From positions 17,923-81,922 of the forward strand of contig CAIZQU010000075.1 of NCBI GenBank assembly GCA_903935205.1: DNA of 64,000 bases, in the 5' to 3' direction. The stretch comes from an uncultured cyanobacterium. Its GTDB lineage: Bacteria; Cyanobacteriota; Cyanobacteriia; PCC-6307; Cyanobiaceae. Both the position numbers and the translations under genes were made by a program. Shown one piece after another: positions 23,826-29,920 of the stretch (position 1 is its first letter; each line of letters opens with the position of its first letter). The notes under the pieces were generated by a model. That model worked only from the letters and a program-made list of their open reading frames with translations, was not told the origin of the DNA and made no database searches.

Positions 23826-24340
23826 TCCGGCCCGGATTGCAGGCGGATGGCGAAAGCAGGATGCTCAGAGGGTGTTGGCGGGTTGCCGAATCATGGGTGG
23901 AATTGGCAACATTCATTGTCTTGCGTCAGTGGCAGTCCGGCAGATCATCGAGGTTGAACGGGGCCGTGGCAATTGAGGAGCTCAGCCTCACCATCACCCT
24001 CAGCGGCTGTTGTTGACGACGTTGTCGGGCTGACCAAGGAGGTGTGGCTGGTTATCAAGAGCTGGTGGCATTTGTCAACAACGCTCCTGATCACCAGCTC
24101 ACCTCAGCTACCGATGATTGACGGCAACCATTGGCCAGCTCAGCGGCATGATGTGTTGGGCAATTCCTGCTTCGCAGGCAGCGATTCAGGGGTGTTCGCT
24201 AAGGAGTTGCATCATGGCCAGTGGCTTTTGGTTTGCGCAACCATTGAGGCCGTAATGGCCAGCGGGAGAGGCCGCGCAGCGGCAGCACCAAGGAGGGAGC
24301 CTGGGGGGAGAACACAGCAGGGGCGCACACCGAGGCCGGG
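23826..24340. other. 515-base noncoding stretch at the left edge of the island
   Basis: No supported gene. Visibly lower GC than the flanks. It holds a small inverted pair GTTGTTGAC / GTCAACAAC around 24007 and 24078, and a compact hairpin (CCTGC-TTC-GCAGG) near 24167. The frame read across 23973-24395 has no recognised family. Confidence 0.4.
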
Positions 24341-25190
24341 GAACTGGAGCTGGCCGATGTCAGCCTCCCGCCTGGCAGCGATCCCGATGCCTTGATCTGC
24401 GAGCAGGGGATGGAGGCCCTCCAGCGGCTTGTGGCCAATGCCAGCCATTGGCTGACACGGGGAGCTGGAGCTGCTGTTGGCGCCCCTGCAGGCCGATCCC
24501 GACAATCTTTCGGTCGTCCAGCGCTGTGAGCAGCAAGCCAGACAGCTCCTGGCCCTGTTGCCCCCCGGTGCGCTGCGTCAGCGGGCGGAGCAGCGGATCA
24601 GGGAGGCCCTGGGGGTGGTGCCCAAGGTGGCTCCAGCACCCAAGGGGCGAGCGGAGGAAGCCGCTGGGCGGCTCAGAGGGGGGAAGGCTTGGGCGCCTTG
24701 CGGGGGCAGTGCCGGTGGGGGGAGATCAGGGGGCAGGCAACCAGGCACGCCCGACCGCCCTGCAGCGGGTTTCCCTGCAGGGCGGTCCCCCCAGGAGCAG
24801 GGCACCACGCCGACCACGGAGCCCGCCGCCGCCCTCTCACCCGAGCAGACCGCCGCCATTGAGCGGGCGGAATTGCGCGCATTGCGCCTCTTCCTCTGCA
24901 GCCCTGTCTGCCGGGATCCCTTGGCCGTCCTTGTCGTCAGAAACCCGCTCTACCGGCAAGCTCAGGCTTGTCTGGTGGAGGCCCATCGGCGGCTGCCGCG
25001 CTCCATTCGCACTGCTCAGGAGGATCCGTTGCCCAAGGTCGTGCTTGCTCTCTGTCCCCAGCTGGAGCCGCACCTTGCTTCCCTCCTGGAGGGGTTGTGC
25101 ACCATGGAGGCGGCGGCAAGAGAAGCGTTATTCCTTGCACCCGAGGGGGAAATGATGGCGATCTTGGATGTGTTGGAGCCGGTAGAATGA
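24341..25190 (+). pseudogene. Frameshifted fragment resembling the DnaG primase C-terminus
   Basis: Two frames together give one continuous primase-like sequence. In frame from 24341: LPPGSDPDALICEQGMEALQ then LVANASHWLTR, resembling the end of the DnaG TOPRIM region (LPxGxDPDxFLxxxGxxA). After one extra G in the run at 24459-24462 the next frame continues ELELLLAPLQADPDNLSVVQ and AEQRIREALGV, then a Gly/Pro linker and a C-terminal helical part (ERAELRALRLFLCSP; LYRQAQACL; MAILDVLEPVE) like picocyanobacterial DnaG helicase-binding domains. The zinc and catalytic TOPRIM parts are missing. Identification rests on pattern memory, so moderate confidence; it could be a mobile-element primase remnant. 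Confidence 0.55.
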
Positions 25191-25380
25191 AAGAGTGAAA
25201 GCCCACCGAGTCACCCAGGTTCTTTGGCCATGGGGCAGTGGGCCGGTGCTGTGCGGATCGTGCGGCCGTTGGTTCGGGGCAGGCCTTGCCAACGGGGGTC
25301 GCCGATCACCGGAGCGGGTCTGGACCCTTCTTGCACTCCCGCTGGAATCCCTTCCAACGGCTCTGACGGTGAAGGGTGCT

Positions 25381-25503
25381 GGGGGAGAGAAACAGCCGGG
25401 ACGGACGCCCACAGTGGTATTGAGGTTGTCCGGGTGATTGCTGTTCCGCATGGCCGCGCGGGCGTTGACAGGATCGTTGATCCAGGACCCGCCGCGCAGC
25501 AGC
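25381..25503 (-). repeat. DGR template repeat (TR)
   Basis: A 123-base non-genic copy of the 3' end of the neighbouring STAND gene, aligned without gaps at an offset of 308 to 25689-25811. It differs from that copy at 12 positions: 25420, 25421, 25426, 25427, 25435, 25439, 25442, 25445, 25465, 25466, 25477, 25478. All are T on the plus strand here, i.e. A on the coding (minus) strand. The coding strand has 20 adenines in this stretch, 12 changed; the 103 other positions are all identical. Read as protein it gives GGSWINDPVNARAAMRNSNH then PDNLNTTVGVRPGCF, rich in AAC/AAT codons, as in known template repeats. Known DGRs copy such a repeat through error-prone reverse transcription at adenines. 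Confidence 0.93.
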
Positions 25504-25562
25504 TGAACGACCCGCCCTCACCGACTAATCAAGCGCATCGAGCCTTGGAGGAGGTGCTTTGA

Positions 25563-25592
25563 AACAAAAAATTTCAGGCGCCTGCGGCGCCG
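25563..25592 (-). terminator. Rho-independent terminator after the variable gene
   Basis: On the minus strand GGCGCC-GCA-GGCGCC (25577-25591) is followed by TGAAATTTTTTG. The stem is short but perfect and GC-only. It lies between the variable gene and the template repeat, so TR transcription may need its own promoter or read-through. Confidence 0.65.
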
Positions 25593-25598
25593 TAGGGG

Positions 25599-25645
25599 CA
25601 ACAGCCAAAAGCCGTAAGCCAACAGCCAAGGGTAAAACAACAGCC
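25599..25645. repeat. Three spaced CAACAGCC repeats
   Basis: CAACAGCC occurs at 25599, 25620 and 25638, about 18-21 bases apart, in the noncoding gap between the stop of the variable gene and its terminator. Function unknown. Confidence 0.6.
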
Positions 25646-25666
25646 CAGTGCCAAGAGATAAAGGGC

Positions 25667-28600
25667 TTAAGGGTAAAGAATTAGTCCTGGGGGAGAGAAA
25701 CAGCCGGGACGGACGCCCACAGTGGTAACGAGGCCGTCCGGGCGATCGCCGTACCGCATGGCCGCGCGGGCGACGACAGGATCGAAGATCCAGGACCCGC
25801 CGCGCAGCAGCCTGTAGATCTGCTCATTATTTCCCTCCAGTTCTGGATCAGGGCCATCCAGCGCTCTCCCATCCCCCCCAGCGCCCTCCAAAGGATCACG
25901 GTGCCATTGGTCCTCACACCATTCCAAGAGCTGCCCGTGCATCTCGGCCAACCCCCAGCGGTTCACCAGGCCAAAGGAGCCCATTGGCACCGGCCGTTGG
26001 CGATAAGCACCCTTGCGCCCACCGCCGTAGCTGTAGCCGCCGTCGTAATTCGCCCAGCTGGCATCCAGGGTGTCGCCGAAATGGAAGGGAGTCCCCGACC
26101 CAGCCCGGCAGGCCGCCTCCCATTGGCTCTCGCTCGGCAGGGCCAGCTGGGGCGCCTCGCCCTGGCCGCCCAGCTCCGGCCACTGCTCCTTGAGCCAGCG
26201 GTTCAGCCTTCGCAGCCATTCGTGACAGTCGAACCAACTCACGCTGTCCACCGCCAGGCCGCCGGGCTGGGCGTGACTTTCCCAGAGCCCATCGGGTTTG
26301 TAGGTGCCGGGGGTCGAGCTGATGTCGCGCTCCAGCCTGGGCAACGCCGCCACCGCACGCCACTGCGCCTGGCTGATCGGATGGCGCACCAGGGCATACG
26401 CCTTCAGGCTCACCCGGCGCTGGGCCTCCACATTCACCCCCTCGCATTTCTGCCGGAATTGGGTGTAGACATCCCGGCCGGTTTCCCCCTCATGAGAACC
26501 GATCGTGTAGTCATCTCCAGGCACCAGCACCAGCTCCAGTTGTTGCGGCTCCAGCCCTTGACATTCCGGCAGGGGTAGCTTCCACACAGGTGGAGTCACC
26601 ACCTCCGTGCGGATCCGCAAGCCCCTCCCTTCCTTGATCGCGCTGAGAGTGAGCATCGGCACCCTTCGGCCGGGACCGCTACCCAACAGGGGCAACTCCG
26701 CCGACGCCGCCAACTGCAATCCCCTGGAGGCTCCCTGCAACACCGGTAGCCGGCGGTCATGCTCCGCCCAGCCTTCTTCTTCATCCACCAGCAGATCCAA
26801 GGCATCGGCGCGGAGGTGCTCCTCCAGCAAGCCCTCGATCCGCTCCCTCAGAAGGGAGTGCTTGCCGCCCAGGCGCTTGGCCGCCAGACCCAGGGCCTCC
26901 ACTGCCGCCCTCCGCAACTCAGCGGGTTGCTCTCCTTTCCGCGCCAGCTTCTCCAGCGCCTCCACACCGGTCTCCGAGCCGATCAGGCCCAATGCCACTG
27001 CCGCATCTTCGCGCTCTTCCGCAGGCAGGGCGTCATTGGCCAGCACCTGGCTCAAGCGATCGGTGGCCACCACCGAGGCCGCCCGTCGATCCTCTGGCTC
27101 AGCCGCCGCCGCCATCGCCGCCAATTTGCTGATGGCATCGCGCCGTTCGCTGGCCACCGGCACCACCAGCTCCCACATCCATTTGCGGGCCCGCTGCTCC
27201 GCCAACCGTTCCCTTTCCTTCTCCGGATTCAGCCCGCCCAGTTGCGCCAGCCGATCGGGCGCCGCCAACGGCACGCCACGGCCGTTGCGTTCCAGAGCCG
27301 CATCGCGCAGGGCCAGAAAAAAGCCCCTCGCCCGTGACAAGTCCTCCCCCTTGGCCTGACGCCGCTCCAGGGCCCCCAGAAATCCCTCCCAGGCCACCGT
27401 TTGCCCGGCACTGCGGCTAAAACTTTCCAACACTTCCAAACGCGCCAGCGCCGCCAGGTAATCCGCCAACGGATCGAGCGGAAAGCGCAGTTCGCTGGTG
27501 TCTTCGCCGGGGTGGATGAGCAGCCGCAGTTCGCAGAGATAGGCGAGCAACGCCTCCGCCTTCAACGCCGTCATCGCCAGCCCGTCCGGTTCGGCCAACA
27601 TCAGCGTGGCCATGGCCAGGCCCCGGCTGAACTCCCGCGGCTGATAGGCCGGCTCCCCATCCACCCCCTCCTGCTGGTGGCTGGCCAAAGCCAGGCGCTT
27701 GAGGGCCCGCTGCACAAGATCGCGGTCGATCGTCAGCCCCGCCCGTTGCCGCTGGACTGGATCGGCTGGCGTATCAATCCGTCGCACGTAGCTCAACATC
27801 AGTTGCGGCACCGACCCCGCCAGCAACCCTTTGGCCCGATTGGCGATCACATCGTCGATGAACATCTGGGCCAGCAGCGCCGTGATCGGCTTGTCGCCCA
27901 CGATGCGGCGCAGCTGGTTCTGGGCGGGCACAAGCTCGTCATCCCGCAGCAGCTCACCCCGCCCGCCCGCCTTGAGGTACTCCACAAAAAACGTCTGCAA
28001 CCGATCCAATGCGATCGGGCGCGGCTTGATCTGGCTCAGGGCTCGGCCCGTCCAGCTGTCCTCCTCGCTGCGACTGGTGGCCAGCACCAGCCCCGGCGGC
28101 AACCCCGCCAACAGCCGCTGGCGGGCCGCTGGAGCGAGTTCCGACACATGGTCGAGGATCGGCACCAGCCGCCGCCCGCGCAGCAAAGCCTCCACCAGCT
28201 CCAACCCGGGCGGCTCGCCCAGGTGATCGCCCAGCCAGCCGCGCACCTTCTGGGCCACCGTTTCCCCCTCCCCCAGGCCCGTTTCGATCAGCACCGGCAG
28301 ACGCACCACCTCGCCGGGCTCACCCTTCAGCCACCAGCGGGCGATCGCAAACGCCAGGCTTGTCTTCCCCGCGCCGCCATCACCACTGATCAGGAGGATC
28401 CGAGCCGGACCATCGGCCAACAAGGGCGCCACATCCGCCGGCCGCAACAGCGCGGCTGGGGCCTGGCCGGACCCGTTGGGCAGAAATTCCACCTCCAGGG
28501 GCACGTGCACCTCCCGCTGGCTAACCGTGGGCGTTGTGAGGAAGGCCTTCTCCAGATCGCTGTGGTGACATTCCACCCAGGTCTGGAGCTCCTGGGGGGT

Positions 28601-29158
28601 GTAGACCCGCTGGGTGGTTGTGCCATTCCATGCTCGCTCTCCCTGTTTAGGCGGTGGGTTGGCTGCCAGGGTCGTGATCGCCTCGCGGAACACCCGCCAG
28701 CCGCTGCGACCGTCCTCGTGATCGCTGCAATCCACCGGCACGCACTTGTCGCTTACACGGCGACGAAAGGCCTCCAGCGCTGCCTGTGCTTCTGCGTCGC
28801 GTTCGATGCCATTGCGTGAATCAGAGACAAAACCAAGGAAAAAGGCATGGAGGGACAGGCCGGCATCCAGGGCAGCCTCAAACTCCAGCTCCGTCACCGA
28901 TTTTCCCCCGTGCTCGGCCCGCCGTGTGCCATAGCGCTCGCCAAGGATCAACACGTAGTGATCGCTGGCCCGCACATCCCGCTGACAGGTCTCCACCAAG
29001 GGATCCGGAGAGCCGCCGTAGCTATCGCCATACGCATGGTTTCGGCGGGTGATCAGCTCCTTGGCTTCCTCCCGCTCTTTCTTTAAGCCCAGAAAGGGGC
29101 TGGAAATGTAAAACCTGTGGGCTGAGTCTCCTCCCTTGGCTCTGCCCTTGGCTTCCAT
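25667..29158 (-). CDS. DGR variable protein: DUF4062 - STAND ATPase - HEAT-like - FGE/C-type-lectin-like
   Basis: 1163 residues, probably a ligand-triggered conflict or defence signalling protein. Domains in order: DUF4062/TIR-like at about 14-110 (HRFYISSPFLGLKKEREEAK; DHYVLILGERYGTRR); a STAND/NACHT-type ATPase with Walker A LISGDGGAGKTSLA (about 252-266) and Walker B-like RLVPILDHVSEL (about 330-341); a helical region to about 640; HEAT-like repeats at about 660-790 (EEREDAAVALGLIGSE); and a C-terminal FGE-sulfatase domain at about 870-1157 with VPGDDYTIGSHEGE, LPSESQWEAACRAGS, WGLAEMHGQLLEWCEDQW and LLRGGSWIFDP. Residues about 1116-1157 lie in the variable repeat. GC is lower than in neighbours. 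The ATG at 29158 leads directly into the DUF4062 domain. Function in defence is inference from architecture. Confidence 0.9.
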   Translation of the reverse strand: MEAKGRAKGGDSAHRFYISSPFLGLKKEREEAKELITRRNHAYGDSYGGSPDPLVETCQRDVRASDHYVLILGERYGTRRAEHGGKSVTELEFEAALDAGLSLHAFFLGFVSDSRNGIERDAEAQAALEAFRRRVSDKCVPVDCSDHEDGRSGWRVFREAITTLAANPPPKQGERAWNGTTTQRVYTPQELQTWVECHHSDLEKAFLTTPTVSQREVHVPLEVEFLPNGSGQAPAALLRPADVAPLLADGPARILLISGDGGAGKTSLAFAIARWWLKGEPGEVVRLPVLIETGLGEGETVAQKVRGWLGDHLGEPPGLELVEALLRGRRLVPILDHVSELAPAARQRLLAGLPPGLVLATSRSEEDSWTGRALSQIKPRPIALDRLQTFFVEYLKAGGRGELLRDDELVPAQNQLRRIVGDKPITALLAQMFIDDVIANRAKGLLAGSVPQLMLSYVRRIDTPADPVQRQRAGLTIDRDLVQRALKRLALASHQQEGVDGEPAYQPREFSRGLAMATLMLAEPDGLAMTALKAEALLAYLCELRLLIHPGEDTSELRFPLDPLADYLAALARLEVLESFSRSAGQTVAWEGFLGALERRQAKGEDLSRARGFFLALRDAALERNGRGVPLAAPDRLAQLGGLNPEKERERLAEQRARKWMWELVVPVASERRDAISKLAAMAAAAEPEDRRAASVVATDRLSQVLANDALPAEEREDAAVALGLIGSETGVEALEKLARKGEQPAELRRAAVEALGLAAKRLGGKHSLLRERIEGLLEEHLRADALDLLVDEEEGWAEHDRRLPVLQGASRGLQLAASAELPLLGSGPGRRVPMLTLSAIKEGRGLRIRTEVVTPPVWKLPLPECQGLEPQQLELVLVPGDDYTIGSHEGETGRDVYTQFRQKCEGVNVEAQRRVSLKAYALVRHPISQAQWRAVAALPRLERDISSTPGTYKPDGLWESHAQPGGLAVDSVSWFDCHEWLRRLNRWLKEQWPELGGQGEAPQLALPSESQWEAACRAGSGTPFHFGDTLDASWANYDGGYSYGGGRKGAYRQRPVPMGSFGLVNRWGLAEMHGQLLEWCEDQWHRDPLEGAGGDGRALDGPDPELEGNNEQIYRLLRGGSWIFDPVVARAAMRYGDRPDGLVTTVGVRPGCFSPPGLILYP
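25689..25811 (-). repeat. DGR variable repeat (VR)
   Basis: The last coding bases of the STAND gene, paired with the template repeat 308 bases away. Adenine-site changes from the template alter eight residues of the lectin-like domain: Asn to Phe, Asn to Val, Asn to Tyr, Ser to Gly, Asn to Asp, His to Arg, Asn to Gly, Asn to Val. Coding-strand changes are seven A-to-G and five A-to-T. All other codons, including GGSW, ARAAMR and VGVRPGCFSPP, are unchanged at the nucleotide level. The last 39 bases toward the stop codon are identical and GC-rich, which fits the initiation-of-mutagenic-homing site at this end. Confidence 0.93.
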
Positions 29159-29224
29159 CTCCTGATCAGATCCAACACGTTCCCATCATCCACTCACCAG
29201 GCGCTAGGGGCAAGCTGAGCCGGC

Positions 29225-29582
29225 TCAACCCTCCTCATGCGATCTGGGCATCTCCTCTGGAGCACCCCCCTCCCCCGCCAACCAAAGCACCGCCCCCCGC
29301 ACCACCTACGCATGGCAGGGCAACGGATGGCACCAGCAGAGCAGCTCCAGCTCCCCCACCCGCGTGCGCTCCAACAGCCGCCGCAGCTCTTGCTCCTGAG
29401 CTGAGCCCGGCTCCTGCAGCCGTGCCCAGAGCCAGCGCCGGTACTTGGCCGATCACCTCCTCGCGGCTGCCATCCCGCCCCATCACAAATGGATTCCCCA
29501 GCGCACTGGGCCACCCCACATCGGCCTGTCCGGGTAACAGGCTGCCAAGGCCCCCTTTGGCTTTGCCGATGGTGATCCTCAT
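29225..29582 (-). pseudogene. Broken DUF4326 gene
   Basis: A minus-strand frame from the ATG at 29582 starts MRITIGKAKGGLG and reaches WPSALGNPFVMGRDGSREEV, the hallmark of DUF4326 proteins (GNPF motif). The frame is then lost at GGCCAAGTACC (about 29448), where removing one base restores QYRRWLWARLQEPGSAQEQ and ELELLCWCHPLPCHA, also typical of the family (CWCxPxxCHA). A TAG follows CHA directly, and the remaining open part runs to TGA at 29225-29227. With one frameshift and one stop it is probably dead. DUF4326 genes are common on phages and islands. It lies just upstream of the DGR gene. Confidence 0.7.
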
Positions 29583-29716
29583 CGGAGCAGCTGGTGGCGG
29601 CTTGCGAGAGGGATAGGGAGCCCCACCAACCAAAGGGTTCCGCCCGTTCGCCCCAGATCCCGTAGGAAGTCTGGATAGCCTATGGAGCTGCTCTTACCCC
29701 GGCAGCCCCCGCTGCC

Positions 29717-29920
29717 ATGGCTGAACCTCCCTCCCCTGAACACGCCGATTACGTGCTTCTGCACGGGACCACCGGCATGGCCCTCTACAGCACCTGCGCC
29801 ACGGCGGCCGAGATCCATAGGGCCAACGGCAACCTCCAGCGGGCCGGCCATCCAGCCCGCTACGTGGCGGCAAGGCATCTGCGACATCGGCCGCCGCACC
29901 ACATCCATCCCGGGGGCTGA
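29717..29920 (+). CDS. Small hypothetical protein
   Basis: 67 residues from the ATG at 29717. Readable middle: ADYVLLHGTTGMALYSTCAT, then AAEIHRANGNLQRAGHPARY. The regular alternation and the HPARYVAARHL block look like a real short protein, but I cannot assign a family. The end is His/Pro-rich. It sits between the DUF4326 remnant and the integrase remnant, facing the latter. Confidence 0.45.
   Translation: MAEPPSPEHADYVLLHGTTGMALYSTCATAAEIHRANGNLQRAGHPARYVAARHLRHRPPHHIHPGG

What the first reader, a model, noticed from the sequence alone, without database searches (positions are those of the whole stretch)
25381..25811. Diversity-generating retroelement: template repeat and variable repeat with adenine-only differences
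25381-25503 and 25689-25811 align over 123 bases without gaps. All 12 differences sit at coding-strand adenines of the 25381 copy (12 of 20 adenines changed, 0 of 103 other positions), with seven A-to-G and five A-to-T. The second copy is the 3' end of a gene with an FGE/C-type-lectin-like domain, the usual DGR target; the first is noncoding. Eight residues change and all others are identical, so this is directed, not ordinary, divergence. The GC-rich identical end (39 bases) fits the homing initiation site.
Basis: seen in the sequence. Interest (0 to 1): 0.95.

Follow-up and report, generated by a model that had tools for sequence, protein, structure and literature searches.

The report
Retroelement template without its enzyme
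A cyanobacterium, likely of the Cyanobium group, carries a template and a target gene end that differ only at template adenines, with no reverse transcriptase in the window, so the rewriting enzyme is likely supplied by enzyme-bearing retroelements elsewhere in the same genome.

Summary
In detail: 25503-25381(-) and 25811-25689(-) align without gaps and all 12 differences fall on template adenines (0 of 103 other sites). They are the template (TR) and variable repeat (VR) of a diversity-generating retroelement (DGR). The VR lies near the end of a 1163-aa DUF4062/NACHT-like/FGE protein. The window has no RT or Avd gene; the genome's two RTs lie in DGRs on contigs C91 and C157 with their own TRs. 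The VR follows the window TR at 20 of 20 sites against TR-C91 and 23 of 23 against TR-C157, so the local TR was the template; it keeps the covarying RNA scaffold of RT-bearing DGRs. In relatives, the VR beside G024's only RT fits a TR 4 kb from that RT (0 non-A, 13 A), and a G030 TR beside a gutted avd-RT fits three VRs at 0 non-A. Against this, three RT-less TRs have stale VRs (7, 9, 11 non-A). I read it as an RT-less DGR unit, probably served in trans (0.6); recent loss of a local RT is the main rival (0.32). New variant of a known kind.

The parts
25381..25503 (-). Template repeat (TR), 123 nt, 20 adenines; in the VR frame it reads GGSWINDPVNARAAMRNSNHPDNLNTTVGVRPGCFSPP
   Evidence: alignment; VR follows this TR at 20/20 and 23/23 sites that distinguish it from the two RT-linked TRs of the genome
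25689..25811 (-). Variable repeat (VR), 41 codons near the C-terminus of the target gene; 12 substitutions, all at TR adenines
25667..29158 (-). Target gene, 1163 aa: DUF4062 (17-96), NACHT-like (253-396, below Pfam cut-off), FGE-sulfatase / C-type-lectin-like domain (876-1150)
25504..25688 (-). 185-nt spacer between VR and TR, where RT-bearing relatives carry avd and RT
25577..25591 (-). Perfect inverted repeat GGCGCC-GCA-GGCGCC about 98 nt after the VR; at about 84 nt (C91) and 117 nt (C157) in the RT-bearing DGRs of the genome
25508..25519 (-). Conserved leader GAGGGCGGGTCG just before TR, shared (with small changes) with RT-bearing TRs
   Evidence: alignment A1
25198..25380 (-). Conserved TR 3' flank (predicted RT-Avd-binding RNA scaffold); cassette homology to six of the seven relative loci compared stops at 25185-25198
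   Evidence: R1 core 25294-25385, 116.9 bits
25339..25360 (-). 9-bp scaffold hairpin with compensatory changes in 5 of 9 pairs across 16 loci
25316..25327 (-). GGGU-CCAG-ACCC scaffold hairpin (its 15-nt unit is repeated in some relatives)
24285..24340 (-). Relic of another VR end (ORF 24212-24505 reads ...GLGVRPCCVLPPGSLL)

Best explanation
The pair at 25381-25503 and 25689-25811 is the TR and VR of a DGR unit without RT or Avd genes in the window, and its VR is likely rewritten in trans by the RT-Avd of one of the two RT-bearing DGRs elsewhere in this genome. Shown: adenine-only differences, VR near the end of an FGE-domain gene, the local TR as template, a TR 3' scaffold sequence shared with the RT-bearing DGRs, and no RT or Avd in the 64-kb window. 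Inferred: the TR is transcribed on its own; RT-Avd, more likely the C91 type because its TR flank is closest (90.6% over 85 nt against 84.1% over 82 nt), binds the scaffold; error-prone cDNA copying changes adenines; and the cDNA replaces the VR. The protein is predicted to be a STAND-like sensor with a diversified ligand-binding tip.
For: Adenine-only differences. No RT in the window; the genome's only RVT_1 hits are C91 and C157, both with bAvd; the best PDB sequence match of the C91 RT is 8ub7, E 1.9e-41. The genome has three R1 TR scaffolds: window, C91, C157. VR follows the window TR at 20/20 sites against TR-C91 and 23/23 against TR-C157. The window scaffold scores 116.9 bits, second of 22 hits in 9 of 42 genus genomes; four scaffolds without an intact TR or RT beside them score 91.8, 64.3, 63.3 and 42.4. 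Natural precedents: in G024 the VR beside the genome's only RT matches the TR about 4 kb from that RT at 0 non-A / 13 A, and the RT-adjacent TR lacks its 5' part and its scaffold. In G030 the C1 TR has three VRs at 0 non-A with 14, 16 and 16 A changes (one of them on contig C95), its avd-RT is a remnant without YVDD, and the only RT there over the Pfam cut-off, with YVDD, is C26. A target on a separate plasmid is diversified in the BPP-1 reconstitution of PMC12875486 (passage).
Against: No activity is measured. Three RT-less TRs have stale VRs: G018 7 non-A, G009 9, G030:C95 11; G009 and G030 have an intact C91-type RT, so an RT in the genome is not sufficient. In G024 and G007, and probably G009 (contigs not joined), the unit lies next to an RT-bearing unit, so the shared spacer does not date the separation from RT in the window. 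At what looks like the same locus G030:C26 carries an intact DGR, so the window lineage may have lost its RT recently. The VR-to-hairpin distance (about 98 nt) is longer than the 4-34 bp of the phage DGRs in PMC3240598 (passages).
Confidence: 0.6

Rival explanations
1. A stranded relic: the VR was diversified in cis by an RT at this locus that was lost recently, and the pair is now frozen.
For: G030:C26 has an intact DGR between stretches similar to the window's flanks (window 24344-24626 and 24858-25183 at 70-72%; 29671-29719 and 29750-29882 at 76-82%). G009:C242 links the upstream part of this target to an avd-RT-TR unit. DGR relics are common in the clade: 4 of 22 genus scaffold hits have no intact TR beside them, and outside the genus G099 and G070 keep scaffold remnants. 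Stale VRs in G018, G009 and G030:C95 show that RT-less pairs can stop being updated. Dore et al. 2024 (PMC10907252, passages and section 7) consider the same explanation for two loci.
Against: The window pair has 0 of 103 non-A differences while the stale G018 and G009 pairs have 7 and 9 (two-sided Fisher p 0.0065 and 0.0016, descriptive only). Scaffold and hairpins are intact; R1 score second of 22. A recent loss must be assumed again for G030:C1.
Confidence: 0.32
2. The VR is templated in trans by the TR of C91 or C157 and the local TR is a dead duplicate.
For: TR-C157 has further VRs on other contigs (C94 0 non-A / 14 A, C153 1/18, C80 3/13), so several targets are used in this genome. In G030:C95 the VR fits the C26 TR (4 non-A) better than its adjacent TR (11).
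Against: The window VR follows the local TR at 20/20 and 23/23 informative sites; of the 16 TRs compared, none other than its own has fewer than 5 non-A mismatches.
Confidence: 0.02
3. Ordinary duplication with divergence, or an assembly or sequencing artefact.
For: None beyond the fragmented assembly (169 contigs).
Against: 12 of 12 differences on 20 of 123 bases; of 32 VRs of this and related genomes compared with 16 TRs, 15 (this one included) have 0 non-A mismatches to some TR; variability of homologous VRs concentrated at TR A-codons.
Confidence: 0.01

Closest known systems
BPP-1-type DGR (Bordetella phage; avd-TR-brt; PMC3240598 and PMC12875486, passages seen)
   Same: Adenine-only TR-to-VR changes; Avd and RT relatives in the genome; a conserved, covarying RNA region 3' of TR, where BPP-1 has the spacer that recruits bRT-Avd; inverted repeat downstream of VR.
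   Different: RT and Avd are not in the window; TR stands directly behind its target's VR; the inverted repeat lies about 98 nt after VR, not 4-34.
Cyanobacterial DGRs with multidomain C-type-lectin targets and remote variable proteins (Vallota-Eastman 2020, PMC7517822, passages seen)
   Same: FGE/CLec target with a conflict-type N-terminus; several targets per genome.
   Different: There remote targets were assigned to the TR of a DGR of the genome, and DGRs were described as absent from Synechococcus and Prochlorococcus genomes; here the target brings its own private TR and the clade is Cyanobium-like.
Incomplete DGRs of Thiohalocapsa PB-PSB1 (Dore 2024, PMC10907252, passages and section 7 seen)
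   Same: Loci that lost RT; trans action inferred from VRs matching a TR elsewhere.
   Different: There the trans cases (DGR 4, 5) match the TR of DGR 2; here TR and VR are both local and only RT-Avd would be foreign.
RT-less DGR of a nanoarchaeon, OTU1 contig 26 (Paul 2015, PMC4372165, passages seen)
   Same: A DGR in which the RT gene is missing.
   Different: Mentioned in a figure legend; the passages seen hold no test of which TR templates the VR or of trans supply.

Membership tests
DGR (complete, autonomous) | Near-repeat pair with differences confined to TR adenines | tested here: met
   12/12 at A, 0/103 elsewhere
DGR (complete, autonomous) | VR at the 3' end of a target gene, usually C-type-lectin/FGE | tested here: met
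   FGE-sulfatase 876-1150, E 1.4e-26; VR is 41 codons near the C-terminus
DGR (complete, autonomous) | DGR-type RT in the same locus | tested here: not met
   none in the window; RTs only on C91 and C157, each with IGNLTSQ and YVDD (that [IVL]GxxxSQ marks DGR RTs is recalled)
DGR (complete, autonomous) | Avd (or other accessory) gene in the same locus | tested here: not met
   best Avd hit in the window E 0.44, nine residues at 25590-25564, i.e. the shared inverted-repeat leader; bAvd (PF22296) at C91 and C157
RT-less DGR unit served in trans | Local TR, not an RT-linked TR, is the template of the VR | tested here: met
   20/20 and 23/23 informative sites
RT-less DGR unit served in trans | TR RNA scaffold like that of RT-bearing DGRs | tested here: met
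   (the window row is one of the 16 that made the model)
RT-less DGR unit served in trans | Inverted repeat at the target site near VR | tested here: inconclusive
   present about 98 nt downstream, same kind and similar place as in the RT-bearing DGRs, but farther than in phage DGRs
RT-less DGR unit served in trans | New adenine changes in VR that depend on a distant RT | not testable with these tools
   needs reads from the population or a mutant
Satellite or parasitic element that moves on its own | Defined mobile ends or empty site | tested here: inconclusive
   homology to six of seven relative loci stops at 25185-25198, and to G018 at 29148, but transposition ends were not sought; no plasmid match

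The most novel reading that the evidence does not exclude
Cyanobium-clade cyanobacteria run a shared-enzyme DGR economy: one or two RT-Avd enzymes serve several units that each bring a private template, so RT-less 'satellite' DGRs diversify different sensor proteins with different, independently evolving templates, and the RT-binding TR RNA scaffold is the ticket that lets a template join.
Probability: 0.5. Interest if true: 0.68.

Novelty: new variant of a known kind. Interest (0 to 1): 0.52.

Why it matters
In experimentally characterised DGRs all components lay at one locus (stated in PMC10907252, passage). A template that works with an enzyme encoded elsewhere would mean that the TR RNA scaffold decides what is mutagenised, that DGR surveys keyed on a nearby RT miss functional templates, and that one enzyme could diversify several sensors from separate templates. 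The relatives found here give directly testable natural cases: G024 and G030:C1 in favour, G018, G009 and G030:C95 as apparently stalled controls.

Tried and rejected
Rejected: ordinary divergence; templating by the C91 or C157 TR. Dated by shared spacer, then withdrawn: the window/G018/G009 spacer is homologous (46 of 60 inner columns, 0 of 500 shuffles), which first looked like proof of old RT loss. But searches show that the same unit probably lies beside an RT in G009 (and it does in G024 and G007), so the spacer shows only that no RT lay between VR and TR. The spacer match to the window is 0/500 for G024, 2/500 for G007 and 124/500 for G030, so G030:C95 is not shown to share it. G030:C48 was listed as a pair at first, but its 'TR' differs from the VR at 52 positions and was dropped as a relic.

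Led nowhere: the AlphaFold2 model of the FGE region has mean pLDDT 44.6 and was not used. PADLOC found nothing for the target at E 0.01. Rfam gathering search of the window gave only two tRNAs. Single-sequence RNA folding was not clearly better than shuffles (window 316 nt z -0.48; four scaffolds z -0.35 to -1.40), so the structure claim rests on covariation. No match of the cassette in the plasmid collection; 98 phage records hold RT relatives, all under 60% identity. Literature searches for an RT-less or non-autonomous DGR with its own TR gave the partial cases cited; Roux 2021 (PMC8144416) and PMC10053308 returned no passage for my terms; the NAR survey 10.1093/nar/gkx1150 is not held, so I cannot say that the idea is unpublished.

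Full report
Observation. The two intervals align over 123 bases without a gap on the minus strand. All 12 differences are at adenines of the 25381 copy: 12 of 20 A, 0 of 103 others, 7 A>G and 5 A>T. Eight residues of the target protein change. The identical 39-base end has 67% G+C against 69% for the window, so its G+C content is not evidence for an initiation site; its place at the 3' end and its perfect identity are what fit.

What the locus holds. The VR lies near the end of an ORF at 29158-25667(-), 1163 aa, with DUF4062, a sub-threshold NACHT match and an FGE-sulfatase domain. Reading along the minus strand: target and VR, a 185-nt spacer with a perfect inverted repeat about 98 nt after VR, a short conserved leader, TR, then a conserved 183-nt flank ending near 25198. 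There is no RT or Avd in the window: RVT_1 finds only C91 and C157 in the genome, and tblastn of four RT/Avd queries gives E 0.34 at best. TR is 43 kb from one end of contig C75 and the target start about 35 kb from the other (coordinates).

The genome's RT-bearing DGRs. C91 holds a TIR-nSTAND1-FGE target with VR, bAvd, RT and TR; C157 holds a VR in a target cut by the contig end, bAvd, RT and TR. Their own VRs differ from their TRs at 13 A / 0 non-A and 16 A / 0 non-A. TR-C157 also fits VRs on C94 (14 A / 0 non-A), C153 (18 / 1) and C80 (13 / 3). The C91 RT's best PDB sequence match is 8ub7, E 1.9e-41; both RTs carry IGNLTSQ and YVDD.

Which template. Where the window TR and TR-C91 differ at non-A sites, the VR follows the window TR at 20 of 20; against TR-C157, 23 of 23. 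The local TR was the template.

The RNA scaffold. A 16-locus alignment of the TR 3' flank has a 9-bp hairpin with double changes in 5 of 9 pairs and a 4-bp hairpin; 99.0% of cells pair, and 0 of 500 shuffles reach the covariation score. All seven double-change cells come from two rows (C157 and G015; letters). A covariance model from these loci gives 22 hits in 9 of 42 genus genomes, three of them in this genome, and hits in 12 of 400 family genomes, the same 9 plus three more. Sorting the 22 genus hits by hand: 11 lie next to an RT or RT remnant (C1 and C18 of G030 have truncated RTs, and the C18 TR is mostly gone); 1 lies next to an RT but with a broken TR (G007:C111:5942); 6 have a VR 185-241 bp before TR and no RT between (window, G018:C13, G009:C85, G024:C83, G007:C111:982, G030:C95:10884); 4 have no intact TR that I could find (G030:C95:9239, G009:C139, G030:C48, G026:C5). 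The sequences in the model's alignment match it by construction, so the window's rank (second, 116.9 bits) is only a sign of intactness.

Relatives, for and against. For trans use: in G024 the target beside the genome's single RT has a VR that matches the distant RT-less TR with 0 non-A and 13 A differences; that RT's own TR has lost its 5' part and its scaffold; the second VR there has 1 non-A / 5 A. In G030 the C1 TR fits three VRs at 0 non-A (14, 16, 16 A; the third on contig C95), while its avd-RT is a remnant without the catalytic YVDD, the C18 RT match stops just before DD, and the only RT over the Pfam cut-off, with YVDD, is C26. G024 is 83% complete and both are draft assemblies of metagenomes, so an unassembled RT cannot be excluded. 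In G007 both VRs differ from the TR at two non-A sites (with 19 and 13 A), so the TR probably changed afterwards. Against: the VRs of G018, G009 and G030:C95 differ from the adjacent TR at 7, 9 and 11 non-A sites; the TRs of G018 and G009 differ at 7 sites while their spacers differ by 2.7%, which suggests recombination among templates. G018 has only a C157-type RT and a distant RT; G009 and G030 have an intact C91-type RT. Of all 32 VRs compared with 16 TRs, 15 have 0 non-A mismatches to some TR and 17 do not.

Spectrum. In 13 pairs picked for 0 non-A mismatches (the window pair included), template adenines became G 106, T 69 and C 12 times and stayed A 133 times; the window's 7, 5, 0 fits.

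How the separation arose. In G024 and G007 the unit follows an RT-bearing unit (avd-RT-TR1-target2-VR2-TR2). G009:C242 carries the start and 5' side of this same target next to its RT unit (window 28651-29422), so G009 is probably alike, but its contigs are not joined. At what looks like the window's own site, G030:C26 has an intact DGR between stretches similar to the window's flanks (left 24344-24626 and 24858-25183 at 70-72%; right only 29671-29719 and 29750-29882 at 76-82%). So the window unit is plausibly the second half of a tandem DGR that sits without its RT-bearing half, and when that happened is unknown. This is the main weakness of the trans reading.

Target diversity. Of 729 homologous proteins 120 were listed; 114 hold LLRGGSW, 97 have the 41-residue GCF...SPP form, and 76 are distinct. 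Entropy averages 2.46 bits at the 14 positions whose window-TR codon has A in position 1 or 2, and 0.18 bits at the 27 others (p 9e-8). Two of the 27 vary strongly (V12 1.94, L27 1.47 bits), which I read as differences between templates. The selection rule fixes a few of the invariant positions, homologs are not independent, and their own TRs are unknown, so the p value is indicative.

Literature. Dore 2024 (PMC10907252; passages and section 7 seen) infers trans action of DGR 2 on remote VRs and leaves other broken loci as possibly stale. Vallota-Eastman 2020 (PMC7517822, passages) reports remote targets and no DGRs in Synechococcus and Prochlorococcus genomes. Paul 2015 (PMC4372165, passages) notes a DGR missing its RT. 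Yan 2019 (PMC6642488, passages) counts 1,353 partial DGRs, which may include cut contigs. PMC12875486 and PMC3240598 (passages) give the BPP-1 scaffold and hairpin roles. My searches did not show an RT-less unit with its own tested TR, but the library is incomplete.

Verdict. A genuine TR/VR pair, not a complete DGR: an RT-less DGR unit, probably served in trans (0.6), with recent loss of a local RT as the main rival (0.32).

Noticed in passing
window 24285-24340 (-): Relic of a second VR 3' end, about 1 kb downstream of TR, inside ORF 24212-24505(-) reading ...GLGVRPCCVLPPGSLL.
   Followed up: partly
L002 (G000:C157, 3046 bp): The two contig ends share 88 identical bases; closing them gives a 2,958-bp DGR unit whose TR is followed by the start of its own FGE target (joined open frame 371 aa): a tandem array or a small circle.
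   Followed up: partly
L057 5767-6293 (G030:C1): avd-RT shrunk to an about 0.5-kb remnant without the catalytic domain beside an intact TR with three VRs at 0 non-A mismatches.
   Followed up: yes
Proteins P0016, P0031, P0043, P0046: Targets whose VR runs straight into PPAPFT, the translated TR 3' flank; P0031 carries the N-rich unmutated template sequence. This suggests VR x TR recombination that deletes avd-RT.
   Followed up: no
TR 3' flanks in L046, L050, L057 (two copies) and L049 (three copies): The 15-nt scaffold hairpin unit around GGGTC..GACCC is repeated in 4 of the 16 aligned loci and single in the other 12.
   Followed up: no
L058 6309-6187 (G030:C48): A VR in G030 matches the TR of G000:C91 at 0 non-A / 15 A, although no such TR turned up among the G030 TRs compared.
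   Followed up: no
window about 25525-25535 (-) and the same place in relatives: By eye, a TANNNT-like hexamer lies 6-7 nt before the conserved GAGGGCGGG leader in several RT-bearing TRs and looks weaker in the window; not tested as a promoter.
   Followed up: no
L129 5221-5415 (G000:C153): Truncated avd remnant on the contig of a further VR of TR-C157.
   Followed up: no
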